NCBI RefSeq assembly: GCF_034343125.1
Contig: NZ_CP139957.1
Coordinates: forward strand, 643,001 to 707,000
DNA from: Caldicellulosiruptor danielii
GTDB lineage: Bacteria > Bacillota > Thermoanaerobacteria > Caldicellulosiruptorales > Caldicellulosiruptoraceae
Length of the DNA stretch: 64,000 nucleotides
Direction: 5' to 3'
In this document: positions 23,131 through 63,851 of the stretch, one piece after another
Layout of the letters: each line of letters opens with the position of its first letter
Numbering within the stretch: position 1 is the stretch's first letter
Notes under the pieces: model-generated
Databases searched by the model: none
Seen by the model: only the letters and a program-made list of their open reading frames with translations
Told to the model about the DNA's origin: nothing
Translations under genes and position numbers: made by a program

Positions 23131-23387
23131 AGCTCTATAGACTCCTAAATAAAAATACATAACAAAGAATCTAATTAGATTATAAAGTATTTTAACTAAA
23201 AAATCAGCATCAAAAGTCTTATCTTAGATTATTAACATCTAATAAAATAAAGGAGTTAATTTTGGCATAAAGCATAATAAATATTATATCAAAAATGTAT
23301 GTAATTGCAAACTGCTATTACGACATATTCCATAAAAGATAGAAAAAATGGAGAAGGAATTTTAAAATTTGTAGCGAATTATATTAA

Positions 23388-23410
23388 TAGTTTGTTTATT
23401 AAATAAACTA
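23388..23410 (+). promoter_or_regulatory. 23-base palindromic operator, ROK/XylR type
   Basis: TAGTTTGTTTA (23388-23398) and AAATAAACTA (23401-23410) form a near-perfect inverted repeat with two symmetric mismatched positions. It sits immediately before the ribosome site of the binding-protein gene. It fits the remembered consensus of ROK-family XylR operators (TTAGTTTGTTT..AAATAAACTAA), and a ROK repressor is encoded in the same cluster. Confidence 0.7.
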
Positions 23411-23428
23411 ATAAGGAGTGAGGATGCT

Positions 23429-24736
23429 GTGAAAAGATTTTCTAAAGTGTTAGCAGTTGTTACGTTGGTTATTTTTATGTTAAGCATGGTTTTTGTTTTA
23501 TCTCAATCCGAAAAGGCTTTCAGCTCAAGCGGTGCCACAAAGAAGATTGTCTTTTGGCACATTACAACTGATGCTGTCGGTAAGCAGATGATTCAAAATC
23601 AAGTAAACAGGTTTTTAAAAGCGCACCCAGATTTTAAGGTTGAAGTTGTTCCGCTCCAAAATGATTCTTTCAAGACAAAGCTTAAAATTGCTATGGGTTC
23701 TAATCAAGCACCAGATGTATTTGTTACATGGGGTGGGGGCCCGTTCTTTGAATATGTAAGAGCTGGTAAAGTAAAAGATATCACAACTTATATGAATGAG
23801 AAAAATTACAAGAGTAGATTTGTTGATGCAGCATTTGGTCCAATAACTTATAACAAAAAAATATGGGCTGTTCCCGTTGAGGGTGCTGGTGTCGCACTGA
23901 TATGGTACAACAAAGAAATATTCAAGAAATATAATTTAAAAGTTCCAACAACATACGATGAGTTTTTAAACATCATCAAAAAATTAAAGTCAAAAGGCAT
24001 AATTCCAATTACACTTGCTAACAAAACAAAATGGCCAGGCTGCTTCTGGTATTGGCATTTTGTAGATAAGTTAGGCGGTTCATCTGCATTTGTGAATGCA
24101 GCAGAAAGAACAGGCGGTAGCTTTGCTGATACGCCGTTTGTTAAAGCTGGTGAGATGCTTCAGGAACTTGTTAAAATGGGTGCGTTCCCCAAAGGGTTCA
24201 ACGGCCTTGACTGGGACACAGGACAATCAAGAATGCTTTTGTATTCTGGCAAAGCTGCAATGGAACTTATGGGGACATGGCAGATACCAATTATAAAAGC
24301 TGAAAATAAGAAGTTCTATCAAAATAATCTTGATTTCTTCCCATTCCCGACAATAAAAGGTGGTAAGGGAGATCCAACCAGTTTAGTTGGAATGGCATCT
24401 TCAAACTACTACGCTGTAACAAAAAATTGCAAATATCCGAAAGAAGCATTCAATATGATTCAATATTTAATTGATGATCAGGCTGTAAAAGAAAGAATCA
24501 ACTATGGACAGATACCACCTGTAAAAGGTTTGAAATTTACAGACCCAATGCTTCAAAAGGTTTACAACATAGTTGCAAAGGCAAAGAGTATTCAGCTTTG
24601 GTGGGACCAGTATCTACCACCACAACTTGCAGAAACTCACAAAGATATTGTCCAGTCTTTATTTGGTTTGACAATAACACCAAAGGCTGCAGCAGAAAAG
24701 ATGGAAAAAGCAGTAAAGGACTATTTCAAGAAATAA
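23429..24736 (+). CDS. Extracellular sugar-binding protein, probable xylo-oligosaccharide ABC transporter
   Basis: 435-residue family 1 solute-binding protein. The signal peptide spans about 1-31; no lipobox cysteine is visible. Typical fold motifs include FWHITTDAVGKQMI, PDVFVTWGGGPF and a C-terminal NMIQYLID segment. GTG at 23429 follows AAGGAGTGAGG. It heads a cluster with two permeases, a ROK repressor and a GH10 xylanase, and has a ROK-type palindrome at its 5' end. Xylan-derived oligosaccharides are therefore the likely ligand; this rests on context. Confidence 0.88.
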   Translation: MKRFSKVLAVVTLVIFMLSMVFVLSQSEKAFSSSGATKKIVFWHITTDAVGKQMIQNQVNRFLKAHPDFKVEVVPLQNDSFKTKLKIAMGSNQAPDVFVTWGGGPFFEYVRAGKVKDITTYMNEKNYKSRFVDAAFGPITYNKKIWAVPVEGAGVALIWYNKEIFKKYNLKVPTTYDEFLNIIKKLKSKGIIPITLANKTKWPGCFWYWHFVDKLGGSSAFVNAAERTGGSFADTPFVKAGEMLQELVKMGAFPKGFNGLDWDTGQSRMLLYSGKAAMELMGTWQIPIIKAENKKFYQNNLDFFPFPTIKGGKGDPTSLVGMASSNYYAVTKNCKYPKEAFNMIQYLIDDQAVKERINYGQIPPVKGLKFTDPMLQKVYNIVAKAKSIQLWWDQYLPPQLAETHKDIVQSLFGLTITPKAAAEKMEKAVKDYFKK

Positions 24737-24763: not shown

Positions 24764-24805
24764 AATTGGTATTAGCTGTGGAATATTCCGCAGCTAATAC
24801 CAATT
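24764..24805 (+). other. Very stable intercistronic hairpin after the binding-protein gene
   Basis: AATTGGTATTAGCTG (24764-24778) is exactly complementary to CAGCTAATACCAATT (24791-24805), with GGAATATTCC inside extending the stem. Only a delayed T run follows. The design fits differential expression, protecting the binding-protein mRNA while limiting read-through into the permease genes. Confidence 0.75.
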
Positions 24806-24856
24806 AACATTTTTATAGATTAAAGAAAAATTTCAACATAAGGAGGAATGCAAAAG

Positions 24857-25747
24857 TTGCAGAGAGATAAAACAACTGTAATTAAGGAAAATTTGGGTAT
24901 ATTTTTATTCTTAGCACCTGCATTAATACTTATTGGCATATATATAATTTGGCCTATCATCATGTCTTTTAATTTAAGCATGTTTGAATGGGACGGTATT
25001 TCGCCTAAGAAGATATATGTGGGATTTAAGAATTGGCAAGAGCTTTTGCATGATGCAATATTTTGGCATGCATTTGGAAACAATATTAAATTTATATTTC
25101 TTTCAATAATTATTGAAATGCCGATTGCTATTTTGTTAGCAGTCCTGCTTGACAGAGGTGGAAAGAAATTTGACATATTCAAGTCATTATTTTATCTTCC
25201 AATGCTAATGTCCTCTGTTGCAATTGGTGTATTGTATAAATATATATACGATCCACAATTTGGACTTTTGAGCGGAATACTGAACTTTTTACATCTTGAC
25301 TTTCTGAACCAGGATTGGTTGGGCGATCCTAAAATAGCTTTTTATTCTGTTGTTGCTGTTATTTGTTGGCAATACATACCATTTTATATGATATTTTTTA
25401 TTGCCGCCCTGTCAAATATTCCGCATGAACTGTATGAAGCTGCAAAGATTGACGGAGCGACCCAGGGTCAATATTTTTGGAGGATTGAACTTCCACTATT
25501 ATCACCAGCAATAAAAACAGCTTGTATTTTGTCTTTAATAGGTTCGCTCAAATATTTTGATTTGATTTATGTTATGACAGAAGGTGGGCCATCGAACGCA
25601 ACAGAGCTCATGGCAACTTATATGTACAAAAATGCATTTGCTTCGTTCAAGATGGGATATGGTTCCACAGTTGCTTCTGCTATGTTTGTGATAATCACAA
25701 CAGCAGGCATCTTGGCATATTTTGCAACTAAAAAGGAAGAAGTATGA
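24857..25747 (+). CDS. CUT1 ABC transporter permease (MalF/UgpA-like)
   Basis: Membrane subunit of the probable xylo-oligosaccharide importer. Six hydrophobic helices; the EAA loop is YEAAKIDGATQGQYFWRIEL. TTG at 24857 is preferred: AAGGAGG ends at 24846, leaving ten bases, whereas the in-frame ATG at 24848 would abut the ribosome site. This gives 296 residues, normal for the family. It is followed by the partner permease after 41 bases. Confidence 0.9.
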   Translation: MQRDKTTVIKENLGIFLFLAPALILIGIYIIWPIIMSFNLSMFEWDGISPKKIYVGFKNWQELLHDAIFWHAFGNNIKFIFLSIIIEMPIAILLAVLLDRGGKKFDIFKSLFYLPMLMSSVAIGVLYKYIYDPQFGLLSGILNFLHLDFLNQDWLGDPKIAFYSVVAVICWQYIPFYMIFFIAALSNIPHELYEAAKIDGATQGQYFWRIELPLLSPAIKTACILSLIGSLKYFDLIYVMTEGGPSNATELMATYMYKNAFASFKMGYGSTVASAMFVIITTAGILAYFATKKEEV

Positions 25748-25788: not shown

Positions 25789-26616
25789 ATGAGTTCAGTA
25801 AAAGAGACAAAAAAGTGGTATTTCATATTTTTGGCCCTTTGGACTTTAATTGCTGATATACCTTTTTTATTTATGTTTTTTACATCTATAAAGACGCAAA
25901 CAGAGCTTTTAATGGGCAATACATGGCAAATTCCCAAAGATCCAACAATTGGGAATTATTCAACTGTTATTCATGGAAGTTTTTTTTACTATCTTAAAAA
26001 CAGTCTTGTTGCTGTTTCTATTTCTGTTATATTGATTTTAATAGTATCATCTATGGCGGCTTATGTATTTTCAAGGTTGAAATTTGCTCTAAATAATATA
26101 TTATACTCTTTAATAATTGCAGGAATGGCAATACCTATACATGTTACTCTCATTCCAATATATATTCTTACAAACAAAATAAAGCTCTATGATACAATTT
26201 TTGCTCTGATTGGTCCATATGTTGCTTTAAGCCTTCCAATGTCAATATTTATTCTCACAGAATTTATGCGAGAGATTCCATTAGAACTGGAAGAAGCAGC
26301 TAAAATTGACGGGTGCTCCATGTTCAGACTATATTCTGATATAATTTTGCCTCTTTCAAGGCCTGCACTTATTACAGTTGGTATATACAATGGAACGTAC
26401 CTTTGGAACGAGTTTGTATTTGCTCTTGTTTTGACAAGTTCGCCAGAAAAAAGGACTCTACCCCTTGGTATTTGGGATTTCCAAGCAAGATATGGTTCAG
26501 ATATTCCTGCTATAATGGCATTTTTGACTCTATCTTTACTTCCAATGTTAATTGCTTATATTTTGGGACAGGACAAGATAATTAAAGGAATGATGGCTGG
26601 GGCTGTAAAAGGTTAA
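25789..26616 (+). CDS. CUT1 ABC transporter permease (MalG/UgpE-like)
   Basis: Second membrane subunit of the importer, 275 residues, with six hydrophobic helices and the loop LEEAAKIDGCSMFRLYSDIILP. AAGGAGG lies upstream of ATG 25789. Ends in GAVKG as expected. It closes the transporter operon; the ROK repressor gene follows with its own promoter. No ATPase subunit is encoded nearby. Confidence 0.9.
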   Translation: MSSVKETKKWYFIFLALWTLIADIPFLFMFFTSIKTQTELLMGNTWQIPKDPTIGNYSTVIHGSFFYYLKNSLVAVSISVILILIVSSMAAYVFSRLKFALNNILYSLIIAGMAIPIHVTLIPIYILTNKIKLYDTIFALIGPYVALSLPMSIFILTEFMREIPLELEEAAKIDGCSMFRLYSDIILPLSRPALITVGIYNGTYLWNEFVFALVLTSSPEKRTLPLGIWDFQARYGSDIPAIMAFLTLSLLPMLIAYILGQDKIIKGMMAGAVKG

Positions 26617-26632
26617 ATTGCATTTAATGTTA

Positions 26633-26662
26633 TAGACACTTTCTATCGTTTTGTTGTATAAT
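26633..26662 (+). promoter_or_regulatory. Probable sigma-A promoter for the ROK repressor and xylanase
   Basis: TAGACA (26633-26638), 18-base spacer, TATAAT (26657-26662), 38 bases before the chosen start codon. Confidence 0.6.
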
Positions 26663-26700: not shown

Positions 26701-27900
26701 ATGGGGAACCATTCACTGATAAAGCAGATAAATAAACTATTGATACTGAAAACAATTTTAGATCATAAAGTAATTTCACGTGCGAAGATTTCAAGACTTG
26801 TAGATTTGAATAAAGCTACTGTTTCTAATTTGACTGATGAATTGATAAAAGAAGGTTATGTTATAGAAAAAGGATATGGAAAGTCAAAAGGTGGCAGACG
26901 ACCGGTTCTTTTGCAAGTTAACAAGGATGTGGGCTCAATAATTGGAATTGATTTAGGTGTTGATTATATTCATTTAATTCTTTCCAATTTTGTTGGCGAA
27001 ATTATATTTGAAGAGTATGTCAATTTAAGATTTGGAGAGAATAAAGAAAAATTTTTGAATACTCTCTTTGCTCTAATACAAAAAGCAATAGATAAATCTC
27101 CCCAGACACCTAAGGGTATTCTTGGAATAGGTATAGGTGTGCCAGGAATTGTAGAGAAAGAATCTGGAGTTGTACTTATTGCCCCAAACTTGAAGTGGGT
27201 CAATATACCTTTAAAAGAGATTTTGGAGGATAGATTTAAACTTCCTGTTTATATAGATAACGAAGCCAACGCAGGTGCACTGGGCGAAAAATGGTTTGGA
27301 GAATGGGGAAAAGTTAGTGATCTAATTTATTTGAGTGTCGGGATTGGACTTGGAGCAGGAATTATTATAGACAACAAACTTTTCAGAGGCGCTGCAGGAT
27401 TTGCTGGCGAGGTTGGACATACCACCATCAATTTTCAGGATGATGTTTGTAGCTGCGGTAACATCGGCTGCCTTGAGAACTTTGCATCTGAGAGGGCACT
27501 TTTGAGTGTTATCAAAAAACTTGTAAAAGAAGGAACAGAAGACAGGTATGTGAGCTGTGAAAATGTAGATGAAATCACGCCTTCTCAAATAATACAAGCA
27601 GCGAAGGATGGAAGTAGAGTTTGCAGAATGGCTGTACTCGAGATTGCTGAAAAGATGGGGATAGGCGTGGCAAATCTTGTAAATATTTTTAATCCTGAAA
27701 TAGTGATTATAGGTAACAAGGCATCATTTTTTGGAGACTTGTTTTTAGAAAAATTGAGGGAAGTAGTTAACCAGAAATCCTTTATTGCCCAGTTTTATAA
27801 TCTTAAAATTGAAGTTTCAAAGCTAAAGGACAAAGCTGTGGTTTTGGGGTGCATAGCAATGGTAATCTCTGATATGCTTTCTTTTCCAGAGTATGCATGA
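26701..27900 (+). CDS. ROK-family transcriptional repressor (XylR-like)
   Basis: 400 residues from ATG 26701, which follows AAGGA by ten bases; a GTG at 26683 is in frame but lacks a ribosome site. The N-terminal winged helix-turn-helix (about 15-65; SRAKISRLVDLNKATVSNLT) precedes a ROK sugar-kinase-like domain with GIDLG, GIGVPG and the zinc motif CSCGNIGCLE (Cys near 250, 252, 257). Such proteins repress xylose or xylan genes until a sugar binds. The probable operator is the palindrome at 23388-23410. Its stop lies 14 bases before the xylanase start, so the two are likely co-transcribed. Confidence 0.9.
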   Translation: MGNHSLIKQINKLLILKTILDHKVISRAKISRLVDLNKATVSNLTDELIKEGYVIEKGYGKSKGGRRPVLLQVNKDVGSIIGIDLGVDYIHLILSNFVGEIIFEEYVNLRFGENKEKFLNTLFALIQKAIDKSPQTPKGILGIGIGVPGIVEKESGVVLIAPNLKWVNIPLKEILEDRFKLPVYIDNEANAGALGEKWFGEWGKVSDLIYLSVGIGLGAGIIIDNKLFRGAAGFAGEVGHTTINFQDDVCSCGNIGCLENFASERALLSVIKKLVKEGTEDRYVSCENVDEITPSQIIQAAKDGSRVCRMAVLEIAEKMGIGVANLVNIFNPEIVIIGNKASFFGDLFLEKLREVVNQKSFIAQFYNLKIEVSKLKDKAVVLGCIAMVISDMLSFPEYA

Positions 27901-27914
27901 GGAGGAATAATAAG

Positions 27915-29984
27915 ATGGAGTGTGGTATTTATGGAAAAATGAAAAGGTTTTCAGCTATGCTTTTAACAATTTTAATTTTAACTACAACCCTCATAGGGTT
28001 AGAAGGTGTTAAATTTGGTAGAGTCAACGGAGCAACTAAAAAGAGTTTTATTGGATTTAATTTTGAGAATAAATTGGCAACTCCATTTAAAGCATCGGGC
28101 AAATCTGTTGTTTTAAAGATTGACAGTACAACAGCAGCTGAAGGATCCATTTCCCTTCTTGTAAGTGGGAGAAAGCAAATATATGATGGAGTTTTGCTTG
28201 ATGCGACCAATCTGATAGATTATTCAAATGAATATACAATCACTCTTTATGTTTATCACAAGTCCAGCAGACTACAACGTTTTGTTGTAAGTAGTGAAAT
28301 TGAGACAAAGAGCGGAAAAGAAACTAAACTACTGTGTGAAAAGGTTGTAATGCCAAATAGTTGGAAAAAACTTGATGCAAATTTAAACTTAGCTGAGCTA
28401 AGGGGTATTAAAAAGGTTTTACTAAAAGTGTATGTACCAACCTCAACCATTAATTTTTACATTGACCTTTTTGCCATCAAAGTTTACGATAGTTCTCACA
28501 TCATAAAATATGAAAGCTTTGAAGATAAAAACGTGGCAGGATTTATGCCTCAGGATAAAAAATGTAAATTAGCCATCTCAAAAGAAAAAGCATACCAGGG
28601 TACATATAGCATAAAGCTTCAGCAGACTGACAAAAAGCAAAATACGACAGTTTTTCTGCCTGTAAAAGGTACAATTGAAAAGGGTAAGAGCTATTCAATA
28701 TCTTTTTATGTATATCAGCCTGTTCTAAAGAGTTTAAACTTAGCAGTTGGTGTTAGGTTTTTAGAAAACCGAAAAAACACAAAAGAGATTATACTTGCCA
28801 AATTGGCTGTTCCAATGAATAAGTGGACAGAAGCATTTGCAAGTTATAGGCCTTCTTTGGAATCAAAGGTAAAAGACTTTGTCATTTTCATAAGGCCTCT
28901 TTCAGATGTTTCTTATTATTACCTTGACAGCTTCACAATCTTAGATGATGAGTGGTATTCAGCTGTGCCTGATTTAGATTTGCCTTCTTTAAGTGAGAAA
29001 TATAAAAACTACTTTAAAGTTGGTGTTGCTGTACCCTACAAGGCTTTAACAAATCCTGTTGATGTTGCGCTAATAAAGAGACATTTTAACAGCATTACAG
29101 CAGAAAATGAGATGAAGCCAGAAGCACTTGAGCCGTTTGAAGGGACTTTTAGCTTTTCAATTGCTGATGAGTATCTGGATTTTTGCAAGAAGAATAATAT
29201 AGCTATCCGAGGGCATACCCTTGTGTGGCATCAGCAAACACCCAGCTGGTTTTTCCAGAACCCTCAGACAGGGAAGAAGCTGACAAACAGTGAAAAAGAC
29301 AAGAATATACTTTTAGAGAGGTTAAAAAAATATATCCAGACAGTTGTTTCAAGATACAGGGGCAAGATTTATGCTTGGGATGTTGTCAATGAAGCAATAG
29401 ACGAAAATGAGCCTGATGGATTTAGAAAAAGTGATTGGTTTAAGATATTGGGGCCTGAATATATTGAAAAAGCCTTTATTTTTGCGCATCAGGCAGACCC
29501 GAATGCACTGCTATTTTACAATGATTATTCAACAGAAAACCCGATAAAAAGAGAGTATATCTATAAGCTTGTTAAGAATTTAAAGGCAAAGGGGATACCA
29601 ATTCATGGTGTTGGTCTTCAGTGCCATATTTCTGTGAGCTGGCCAAGCGTTGAAGAGGTTGAAAGAACCATAAAACTTTTTAGCAGCATTCCTGGTATTA
29701 AGATACATGTCACAGAAATTGATATAAGTGTGGCAAAAGAATTTGGTGAAGATATAGATGAGGAAACAAAGAGATATCTTTTGATTCAGCAGGCAAGAAA
29801 ATTAAATGACCTTTTTGAAGTTTTTAAAAAATACAAAAATGTGGTAACAAGTGTTTCGTTCTGGGGGCTTAAAGATGACTATTCATGGCTAAAAGGCGAC
29901 TACCCACTTTTATTTGACAAGAACTATCAGCCAAAATTTGCTTTTTGGAGTTTAATAGACCCATCAGTTGTGCCAGAGGAATAA
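27915..29984 (+). CDS. Secreted GH10 endo-1,4-beta-xylanase with two CBM22-like modules
   Basis: Hydrolyses internal beta-1,4 bonds of xylan. ATG 27915 is chosen since GGAGG at 27901-27905 sits nine bases upstream; an upstream ATG at 27897 overlaps the ROK stop. Layout of the 689 residues: signal peptide (about 1-37), two CBM22-like beta-sandwich modules (about 42-190 and 195-345), and the GH10 barrel (about 355-685) with acid/base E493 in WDVVNEAI and nucleophile E601 in HVTEIDI; HTLVWHQQ is also conserved. No SLH or dockerin is present, so the enzyme should be released or held loosely. Linked to the xylo-oligosaccharide transporter and XylR-like regulator. Confidence 0.95.
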   Translation: MECGIYGKMKRFSAMLLTILILTTTLIGLEGVKFGRVNGATKKSFIGFNFENKLATPFKASGKSVVLKIDSTTAAEGSISLLVSGRKQIYDGVLLDATNLIDYSNEYTITLYVYHKSSRLQRFVVSSEIETKSGKETKLLCEKVVMPNSWKKLDANLNLAELRGIKKVLLKVYVPTSTINFYIDLFAIKVYDSSHIIKYESFEDKNVAGFMPQDKKCKLAISKEKAYQGTYSIKLQQTDKKQNTTVFLPVKGTIEKGKSYSISFYVYQPVLKSLNLAVGVRFLENRKNTKEIILAKLAVPMNKWTEAFASYRPSLESKVKDFVIFIRPLSDVSYYYLDSFTILDDEWYSAVPDLDLPSLSEKYKNYFKVGVAVPYKALTNPVDVALIKRHFNSITAENEMKPEALEPFEGTFSFSIADEYLDFCKKNNIAIRGHTLVWHQQTPSWFFQNPQTGKKLTNSEKDKNILLERLKKYIQTVVSRYRGKIYAWDVVNEAIDENEPDGFRKSDWFKILGPEYIEKAFIFAHQADPNALLFYNDYSTENPIKREYIYKLVKNLKAKGIPIHGVGLQCHISVSWPSVEEVERTIKLFSSIPGIKIHVTEIDISVAKEFGEDIDEETKRYLLIQQARKLNDLFEVFKKYKNVVTSVSFWGLKDDYSWLKGDYPLLFDKNYQPKFAFWSLIDPSVVPEE

Positions 29985-33072: not shown

Positions 33073-33101
33073 TTGTATTGTAAAATAGTTTGTGATAAAA
33101 T
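33073..33101 (+). promoter_or_regulatory. Probable sigma-A promoter for the SCIFF operon
   Basis: TTGTAT (33073-33078), 17-base spacer, TAAAAT (33096-33101). Confidence 0.55.
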
Positions 33102-33192
33102 ACTATTTGTTGTTTATGCATATAAAGAATATTTTTGCGTGAAAAGAATAAGTTTTATTCTAACTTTTAAAAAAGGGAGGTTTGAGGTTTTT

Positions 33193-33336
33193 ATGAAGCA
33201 TATAAAGGTTGTTGTAAAAAATGCTCTTTCAAAAACAGTTGTCTCTGGCGGCTGTGGTGAGTGCCAGGCATCCTGCCAGTCAGCTTGCAAGACATCTTGT
33301 ACTGTTGGAAACCAAATTTGCAAAAATAGAAAATAA
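33193..33336 (+). CDS. scfA: SCIFF ranthipeptide precursor (six cysteines in forty-five residues)
   Basis: 47-residue precursor with cysteines at 21, 24, 28, 32, 36 and 43 (motif GGCGECQASCQSACKTSC), the defining pattern of SCIFF peptides, which are nearly universal in Clostridia. A radical SAM maturase adds thioether crosslinks. GGGAGG and GAGG precede ATG 33193. A longer frame opens upstream at 33073 but is not supported by a ribosome site. A hairpin separates it from the maturase gene. The cellular role of the product is poorly known; quorum or stress signalling has been proposed for relatives. Confidence 0.93.
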   Translation: MKHIKVVVKNALSKTVVSGGCGECQASCQSACKTSCTVGNQICKNRK

Positions 33337-33380: not shown

Positions 33381-33439
33381 TATGCAAAACTTTTTTAATT
33401 TAAAATGTGATAAAGCAGGAGGAAGACAAGCAGGAAAAG

Positions 33440-34801
33440 ATGGTTCATACGTTTGAGAAGTTTGGACTTAAAATAGTGGTAGATGTGGCATCAGGTTCAA
33501 TTTTCACAGTTGATAGCATTGCTTATGATGTAATAAAGTATTACAAAGAAAATGGAAGTTTTGATGGAGTAGAAGATGCACTTGAGTTTGATAGACAGCA
33601 GATAGCTGAGGCAGTTTTTGAAGTAAAAAGCTTAATTGAACAAGGAGTTTTGTTTTCTGAGGATACATATAAGGATATGAATTTAATTGAAAAGAGAAAT
33701 CCAGTTATAAAGGCAATGTGCCTTCACGTTGCCCACGACTGTGACCTGAGATGCAGATACTGTTTTGCATCAAGTGGCAGTTTCAAACAAGAAAGAAAAC
33801 TTATGAGCTTTGATGTGGGCAAAAAGGCAATAGATTTTCTGCTTCAAAACTCTGGTTCAAGACAGAACTTAGAGGTTGATTTTTTTGGCGGAGAGCCACT
33901 TTTGAATTTTGATGTAGTAAAAAATATTGTTGAGTATGCAAGGCAAGAGGAAAAGAAGTATAACAAAAAAATATCTTTTACACTGACAACAAATGCAACA
34001 AACCTCTCAGACGATATAATTGAATATCTAAACCAGAACATGGAAAATGTTGTACTCAGCCATGATGGAAGACCTGAAGTTAATGACTTTATGAGAATTG
34101 ACAGAAACGGCAATAGCACCTATAGCAAAATCACAGACAACATTTTGAGGTTTATCCAAAAAAGAAATGGGAAAACTTATTACGTGAGAGGAACATTTAC
34201 AGCAAAGAACTTGGATTTTTCAAAGGATGTTATGCACCTTTATAGCCTTGGGATAAAAGAAATTTCGATTGAACCTGTTGTGCTTTCCAAAGACAGTCCC
34301 TGGGCAATACGTGAGAGTCACATTGAAAAAATAAAACAAGAGTATGATATTTTGGCGGAAGAGTTTATAAATGCGAAACTTAAAGGAGAAGGTTTTAACT
34401 TCTTCCATTTCAGTATAGACTTAAGTGGTGGTCCGTGCGTGTCAAAAAGACTTTCAGGGTGTGGTGCTGGGTTTGAATATGTAGCAGTTGACCCGGAAGG
34501 GAATATCTTCCCATGCCACCAGTTTGTTGACAAGCCAGATTTTAAACTTGGTAACCTCTTTGAAGGTATAAAGAGGTATGATTTAGTTGAGGAGTTTAAG
34601 AAAAATACTATTTATGAAAAAGATGAATGTTCACAGTGCTGGGCGAGGTTTTACTGTAGTGGTGGGTGCGCTGCTGCGAATTATAATATGAACGGTGATG
34701 TTAAGAAATCTTACATTGTTGGTTGTGAACTTGAAAGAAAGAGGGTGGAAAATGCAATAGCAATAAAGCTTTATCTTATGGAAAAGGGGATAAGAAGCTA
34801 A
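33440..34801 (+). CDS. scfB: SCIFF radical SAM maturase with SPASM domain
   Basis: Installs thioether crosslinks in the SCIFF peptide. The radical SAM cluster motif C-x3-C-x2-C is CDLRCRYC (Cys 101, 105, 108). A FFGGEPLLN segment contacts SAM, and the C-terminal SPASM region has many Cys (GPCVSKRLSGCGAGFEYVAV, FPCHQF, CSQCWARFYCSGGC). ATG 33440 gives the family's usual start MVHTFEKFG; a GTG at 33407 opens an extension with no homologous feel. The N-terminal part resembles a peptide-recognition (RRE-type) fold. Stop and the next gene's start are separated by one base. Confidence 0.93.
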   Translation: MVHTFEKFGLKIVVDVASGSIFTVDSIAYDVIKYYKENGSFDGVEDALEFDRQQIAEAVFEVKSLIEQGVLFSEDTYKDMNLIEKRNPVIKAMCLHVAHDCDLRCRYCFASSGSFKQERKLMSFDVGKKAIDFLLQNSGSRQNLEVDFFGGEPLLNFDVVKNIVEYARQEEKKYNKKISFTLTTNATNLSDDIIEYLNQNMENVVLSHDGRPEVNDFMRIDRNGNSTYSKITDNILRFIQKRNGKTYYVRGTFTAKNLDFSKDVMHLYSLGIKEISIEPVVLSKDSPWAIRESHIEKIKQEYDILAEEFINAKLKGEGFNFFHFSIDLSGGPCVSKRLSGCGAGFEYVAVDPEGNIFPCHQFVDKPDFKLGNLFEGIKRYDLVEEFKKNTIYEKDECSQCWARFYCSGGCAAANYNMNGDVKKSYIVGCELERKRVENAIAIKLYLMEKGIRS

Positions 34802-63476: not shown

Positions 63477-63797
63477 TTGCCGGCAAGCGTATTTGAGCAA
63501 ATTTCGGATTTTACAAGCTGTTTTTTCCTTGGGTTTGCAGTAGGAGTTGTATTTGATTCGTTCTTTTTCAAAAGAATATTGAAACGCCGCACAAAAGAAC
63601 TTTTATTTTTTATATCTTCGATTATATCCACGGCAATATTGATAGCAGGTCTTATGTTTATAAATTTTTATACACTCAAATGGTACACTTTTTTGGCAGT
63701 AACTTGCGGTATTTATGTTCACAAAAATACCATTTCACCACTCTATAGAGGATTTTTAAAAAAGGTGAACAAAGTTTTATCTTTTAATAAAAGATAA
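63477..63797 (+). CDS. yabQ: Sporulation membrane protein YabQ
   Basis: 106 residues with three or so hydrophobic helices (FTSCFFLGFAVGVVFDSFF; LLFFISSIISTAILIAGLMF; YTFLAVTCGIYVHK). TTG 63477 has GAGAGG nine bases upstream; the frame opens earlier but overlaps yabP. The GVVFDSF segment fits the YabQ family. Needed for the spore cortex in Bacillus. The stop overlaps an AT-only hairpin at 63776-63798, whose role is unclear. Confidence 0.8.
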   Translation: MPASVFEQISDFTSCFFLGFAVGVVFDSFFFKRILKRRTKELLFFISSIISTAILIAGLMFINFYTLKWYTFLAVTCGIYVHKNTISPLYRGFLKKVNKVLSFNKR

Positions 63798-63851
63798 ATT
63801 GTGATAGAATATAACTACACTTTTGAGAGTTTCCAAAAAGGAAGACAAGCC

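What the first reader, a model, noticed from the sequence alone, without database searches (positions are those of the whole stretch)
23388..23410. ROK/XylR-type palindrome immediately upstream of the transporter gene
A 23-base near-perfect inverted repeat overlaps the start region of the binding-protein gene and matches the remembered XylR operator pattern; a ROK repressor gene sits downstream in the same cluster. I saw no second copy upstream of the repressor itself, so autoregulation is not evident.
Basis: partly seen in the sequence, partly recalled or inferred. Interest (0 to 1): 0.5.

Follow-up and report, generated by a model that had tools for sequence, protein, structure and literature searches.

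The report
Known XylR operator before xylan-sugar transporter
This short mirrored DNA motif is the likely docking site of the xylose-type repressor XylR in front of a xylan-sugar uptake operon of a heat-loving plant-degrading bacterium; the same switch has already been described and tested in a close relative, so it is real but ordinary.

Summary
The palindrome is real: TAGTTTGTTTATTAAATAAACTA at 23388-23410, 10 of 11 arm pairs. Self-complementarity alone is not unusual: 33 of 50 random 64-kb sequences hold one as good. The sequence is: it is the window's only place within 3 mismatches of the operator, with none in 100 shuffles.

The genome has one other copy, before a xylose isomerase gene 4.3 kb outside the window. 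In 12 of 12 genomes of the genus the motif lies about 3.3 kb upstream of the XylR orthologue; a second copy occurs in exactly the 8 that have a close xylA and in none of the 4 that do not.

The system is published. PMC8579813 predicted the regulon; PMC12285236 showed XylR binding to both operators in Anaerocellum (Caldicellulosiruptor) bescii.

The repressor gene lies in the operon that the operator controls, so feedback by read-through is likely, although xylR also has a conserved promoter-like site without an operator.

Open: XylR's effector, and the role of two other conserved elements (AGAAGGA box, intergenic hairpin).

The parts
23388..23410 (.). XylR operator: 23-bp palindrome TAGTTTGTTTATTAAATAAACTA
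   Evidence: orthologous sites in 12 of 12 genus genomes; binding of the A. bescii sites by XylR published in PMC12285236
23340..23385 (+). Candidate promoter region of the operon: TAGAAA-17-TAAAAT (23340-23368) by consensus scan; an alternative -10 TATATT at 23380-23385 read by eye. Not mapped here.
   Evidence: consensus match only; such matches are common there, 52 found against 32 expected; conserved block in the 12-genome alignment
23352..23358 (+). AGAAGGA box, starting 36-37 bp upstream of the operator in 12 of 12 genomes; also 40-45 bp upstream of the xylA operator in 8 of 8. Role unknown.
   Evidence: likeness between the two promoters is weak by itself
23413..23418 (+). Likely ribosome-binding site AAGGAG of xynU
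   Evidence: read directly
23429..24736 (+). xynU orthologue: sugar-binding protein of an ABC transporter (SBP_bac_1)
24764..24805 (+). Strong intergenic hairpin between xynU and xynV (19 pairs, partial T tail); possible attenuator or RNA-processing/stability element
   Evidence: a strong hairpin folds there in 12 of 12 genomes
24848..25747 (+). xynV orthologue: permease (BPD_transp_1)
25789..26616 (+). xynW orthologue: permease (BPD_transp_1)
26633..26662 (+). Promoter-like TAGACA-18-TATAAT before xylR, without a XylR palindrome; TATAATA kept in 12 of 12 genomes
26701..27900 (+). xylR orthologue: ROK repressor with N-terminal winged helix. The listed ORF starts at GTG 26683; start set at ATG 26701 (MGNHSLIK) by analogy with the published primer for A. 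bescii XylR
27897..29984 (+). xynA orthologue: GH10 xylanase with two CBM_4_9 stretches

Best explanation
23388-23410 is the operator of the ROK-family repressor XylR (gene at 26701-27900) in the promoter/5' leader of the operon xynU-xynV-xynW-xylR-xynA of a Caldicellulosiruptor/Anaerocellum species. Without inducer, a XylR dimer binds the two half-sites and blocks RNA polymerase at or just downstream of the promoter. When a xylose-type sugar is present, XylR lets go and the operon for uptake and hydrolysis of xylo-oligosaccharides is expressed, together with xylA, which has the only other strong site in the genome. Because xylR is the fourth gene of the operon, induction should also raise the repressor level by read-through. 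Shown here: the palindrome, its conservation, and the second site. Published for the A. bescii orthologue: XylR binding to both sites, and higher expression of xynUVW and xylA on xylan, xylose and cellulose. Inferred: that the same holds in this species, dimer occupancy, the promoter position, the identity of the inducer, and the read-through feedback.
For: Near-identity to the published operators tagtttgtttaataaacaaacta (xylA; also the exact sequence before xylA in this genome) and tagtttgtttaagaaataaacca (xynUVW) (PMC12285236 Table 1). XylR there bound xynUVW with Kd 165 nM by fluorescence polarization, and xylA by biolayer interferometry. Same gene order in this window. Operator in 12 of 12 genus genomes about 3.3 kb upstream of xylR, reversed-pattern control 0 in 13 of 13 genomes. 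Second copy in 8 of 8 genomes with a close xylA and 0 of 4 without. Reported expression of xynUVW and xylA on xylan, xylose and cellulose, and XylR sites within 5' UTRs or over promoter elements (PMC8579813).
Against: No binding or expression data for this species. In PMC12285236 XylR did not bind xylA in fluorescence polarization (only in BLI), and Hill coefficients were below 1. The effector could not be determined there. Self-complementarity alone is not significant. The one genome of another genus, G012, has xylA but no such palindrome, so the pairing is shown only within the genus. Table 3 of PMC8579813 lists xylR without a regulon and an xynA under XynR, so the five-gene operon may not be one transcript throughout.
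Confidence: 0.96

Rival explanations
1. The palindrome is a chance AT-rich inverted repeat, or an RNA hairpin in the 5' leader, not a protein-binding site.
For: Palindromes this good occur by chance in 33 of 50 random 64-kb sequences.
Against: Sequence, not only symmetry, is kept in 12 of 12 genomes and shared with the xylA leader; none in 100 shuffles; XylR binding to the A. bescii sites is published. One base between the arms leaves no loop for a full-length RNA stem (inference).
Confidence: 0.02
2. The site is bound in the cell mainly by another regulator (for example LacI-type XynR) and the neighbouring ROK protein controls something else.
For: XynR is the larger xylan regulator in A. bescii (PMC12285236); the genome has a second ROK protein (G000:C1:575613-576536, 30% identical over residues 80-385 only).
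Against: The XynR operators are a different sequence; a one-mismatch scan for them in the window is at chance level, 5 matches (none exact) against 4.87 expected. The second ROK match does not cover the N-terminal DNA-binding region. [quoted passage not shown]
Confidence: 0.02

Closest known systems
XylR (Athe_0617) and its operators in Anaerocellum (Caldicellulosiruptor) bescii (PMC8579813, PMC12285236)
   Same: Same gene order xynUVW-xylR-xynA, operator before xynU, second operator before xylA, ROK repressor 88% identical (to G002, taken to be A. bescii)
   Different: The window's xynU operator differs from the published one at 3 of 23 positions and is more symmetrical
XylR of Bacillus subtilis and Geobacillus stearothermophilus
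   Same: ROK repressor, very similar operator consensus; A. bescii XylR is 43% identical (as stated in PMC12285236)
   Different: Those regulons hold xylAB and further xylan/XOS loci; here only two strong sites
XylR of Thermotoga maritima
   Same: ROK regulator of xylan/xylose genes
   Different: 33% identical to A. bescii XylR and a broader regulon (PMC8579813)

Membership tests
ROK-family XylR repressor | ROK domain plus N-terminal winged helix-turn-helix | tested here: met
   PF00480 E 4.2e-71 over residues 87-395; N-terminal HTH_24 (residues 17-60) just over its cut-off, MarR and Fe_dep_repress just under theirs; long matches to ROK repressors 5f7p (Lmo0178, residues 6-404) and 1z6r (Mlc, 6-391), and to 4ija (named XylR protein, 17-364). 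No NCBIfam model for XylR was matched; the matches to NagC, Mlc and ROK kinase models are all below their cut-offs
ROK-family XylR repressor | ROK zinc motif present, kinase catalytic Asp lost | tested here: inconclusive
   Read by eye: CSCGNIGCLE present; DNEAN where ROK kinases have NDAN (motifs recalled, no alignment made)
ROK-family XylR repressor | Palindromic TTAGTTTGTTT-type operator before xylose/xylan genes | tested here: met
ROK-family XylR repressor | Operator and regulator gene kept together across species | tested here: met
   12 of 12 genus genomes; not in the 1 genome of another genus, which has no close orthologue (best 30%)
ROK-family XylR repressor | Direct binding of the protein to the operator | not testable with these tools
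   Published for the A. bescii orthologue (PMC12285236)
ROK-family XylR repressor | Release by xylose | not testable with these tools
   Effector not determined in PMC12285236; higher expression of the target genes on xylose reported in PMC8579813

The most novel reading that the evidence does not exclude
The XylR promoters of this genus carry a second conserved control element, the AGAAGGA box 36-45 bp upstream of the operator (12 of 12 xynU and 8 of 8 xylA promoters), bound by a so far unnamed factor or forming an unusual promoter element, so that xylA and xynUVW are under joint control of XylR and something else.
Probability: 0.12. Interest if true: 0.35.

Novelty: already known. Interest (0 to 1): 0.13.

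Why it matters
It confirms, in a further species, a sugar switch already described in A. bescii, where the xylA promoter with its operator has been reported as a xylose-inducible promoter (passage in PMC12285236). The exact match between presence of a close xylA and presence of the second operator across 12 genomes is a tidy check of the regulon. The open points are the inducer of XylR at growth temperature and the role of the two other conserved elements.

Tried and rejected
Chance palindrome: kept as rival, rejected on sequence conservation. XynR site in the cluster: scan at chance level; two of the 5 one-mismatch matches are the two strands of one place just inside xynA (27940-27953), another lies in xynU (23510-23522), none exact. 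More XylR sites in the window: none. A third target, msmK, which PMC8579813 gives a low-scoring site: the only match to the OB_MalK family in the genome lies in an ORF whose best-scoring 23-mer nearby is about 45 bp upstream of the listed TTG start (L117:2464-2486, score -2.8 against 28.5 to 37.9 for the 20 sites used to build the matrix); this is within the random range for 64 kb and is not counted as evidence.

Search of the order (up to 300 genomes asked) returned the same 13 genomes as the family search and the same sites, so it added no wider sampling.

Shared promoter cassette between xynU and xylA beyond the operator: alignment scores were reached by 20 to 181 of 1000 random pairs, depending on the genome (8 genomes), and in G000 2 of the 46 other upstream regions compared scored higher than xynU (20 and 19 against 17), so the similarity itself is weak. 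AGAAGGA-TTTT as a genome-wide motif: 20+13 matches against 12+10 for the control, not a clear excess; the longer composite pattern gave 18 matches in 13 genomes against 19 for the control and did not list the XylR promoters. Of the three exact matches one is the xylA promoter; the other two begin 6 bases after the end of a phosphate-transporter permease ORF and inside a HisA-like ORF (gene names by eye). A short upstream ORF at the AGAAGGA box was considered by eye and dropped because the frame is not kept between genomes. A search for papers with Caldicellulosiruptor, stem-loop, substrate-binding protein, operon and transcript together found 0; this does not show that the hairpin is unpublished, since supplements could not be read.

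Full report
Observation. Positions 23388-23410 read TAGTTTGTTTATTAAATAAACTA, an inverted repeat around one central base with 10 of 11 pairs. It ends 18 nt before the GTG of the binding-protein gene at 23429, just before the likely ribosome-binding site AAGGAG (23413-23418); it is upstream of, not overlapping, the start. Symmetry alone says little in this 36% GC sequence: the window holds four 23-mers this symmetrical and 33 of 50 random sequences hold at least one. The sequence is what counts: within 3 mismatches of the operator pattern this is the only place in 64 kb, with none in 100 shuffles.

Surroundings. The genes that follow are a sugar ABC transporter (binding protein and two permeases), a ROK repressor and a GH10 xylanase with two CBM_4_9 stretches, all on the + strand. 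There is no XylR-like site before the ROK gene, but there is a promoter-like TAGACA-18-TATAAT at 26633-26662 (such matches are frequent in this region, 52 found against 32 expected), whose TATAATA is invariant in 12 of 12 genomes. No terminator-like site was listed between the last permease gene and the ROK gene, so read-through from the operator-controlled promoter is likely.

Genome. The window is G000:C1:643001-707000 of a 2.82-Mb genome. The only other near-exact site is at 638676-638698, 4.3 kb before the window begins and upstream of a xylose isomerase gene (TIGR02630 over its cut-off). With 3 mismatches allowed the reversed control pattern has as many hits as the real one, so no weaker site is claimed.

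Relatives. Of 13 genomes in the family, all 12 of the same genus have the site (reversed-pattern control 0 in all 13). In each of the 12 it lies about 3.3 kb upstream of the XylR orthologue (72-92% identical to the window's protein in the 11 others) and directly before the ribosome-binding site of the binding-protein gene (AAGGAG, or AAGAAG in G008). The second site is present in 8 genomes, the same 8 that have a close xylA (94-100% identical), and absent in the 4 (G003, G007, G008, G011) that have only weak matches of 28-31%; in 8 of 8 it precedes xylA. The remaining genome, G012 of another genus, has a xylA 84% identical beside a ROK gene only 30% identical, and lacks the palindrome. A search of the whole order returned the same 13 genomes.

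Literature. PMC8579813 (passages read) predicted that XylR of C. bescii controls xylA and xynUVW-xylR-xynA, reported that xynUVW and xylA are raised on xylan, xylose and cellulose, and placed XylR sites within 5' UTRs or over promoter elements, hence a repressor. PMC12285236 (abstract, results, discussion and probe section read, other passages seen) gave the operators and showed binding: xynUVW by fluorescence polarization with Kd 165 nM, xylA by biolayer interferometry but not by fluorescence polarization. Its authors could not determine the effector. One genome here, G002, has exactly the published xynUVW operator and a start of xylR matching the published primer, so I take it to be A. bescii; the window's species is a close relative. 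PMC2873477 (passages read) reconstructed XylR regulons in Firmicutes and noted motif groups. Other papers were seen only in listings.

Mechanism. The best account is repression by XylR at the start of the transport operon and of xylA, lifted by a xylose-type sugar. Binding and expression changes are reported for the orthologue; in this species they are inferred. How far its own promoter-like site bypasses this is unknown. Table 3 of PMC8579813 lists xylR separately, changed on xylan only and with no regulon named, whereas xynUVW and xylA responded to xylan, cellulose and xylose; the same table lists an xynA under XynR, while the text of that paper and PMC12285236 put xynA in the XylR operon. 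I found no convincing XynR site in the window. This leaves room for separate expression of the downstream genes.

Loose ends. An AGAAGGA box starts 36-37 bp before the operator in 12 of 12 xynU promoters and 40-45 bp before it in 8 of 8 xylA promoters. The conservation inside each promoter is clear, but the likeness between the two promoters is only weakly above chance and the motif is not clearly enriched in the genome. A strong hairpin lies between the binding-protein and permease genes in 12 of 12 genomes, with a different stem sequence in two of them (G003, G008); a role in giving more binding protein than permease is a guess.

Verdict.

Noticed in passing
24764-24805: Strong hairpin (19 pairs) with a partial T tail between the binding-protein and first permease gene; a strong hairpin folds there in 12 of 12 genus genomes, with an unrelated stem sequence in two.
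   Followed up: partly
23352-23358: AGAAGGA box at nearly fixed distance upstream of both XylR operators (12 of 12 xynU, 8 of 8 xylA promoters); weak as a shared motif.
   Followed up: partly
26633-26662: Conserved promoter-like sequence before xylR without an operator.
   Followed up: partly
33193-33336 and 33407-34801: Six-cysteine small peptide (MKHIKVVVKNALSK..., read inside the ORF listed at 33073-33336) followed by a protein that looks like a radical SAM maturase: resembles the known SCIFF peptide and its maturase (names recalled, no family search made; ORFs).
   Followed up: no
L072 / G012:C2:77516-80016: In the genome of another genus xylA (84% identical) lies next to a ROK gene only 30% identical to the window's XylR, and the palindrome is absent: the xylA regulator may have been exchanged or have diverged.
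   Followed up: no
63776-63798: Perfect 23-bp AT-rich palindrome TTTATCTTTTAATAAAAGATAAA (11 of 11 pairs).
   Followed up: no
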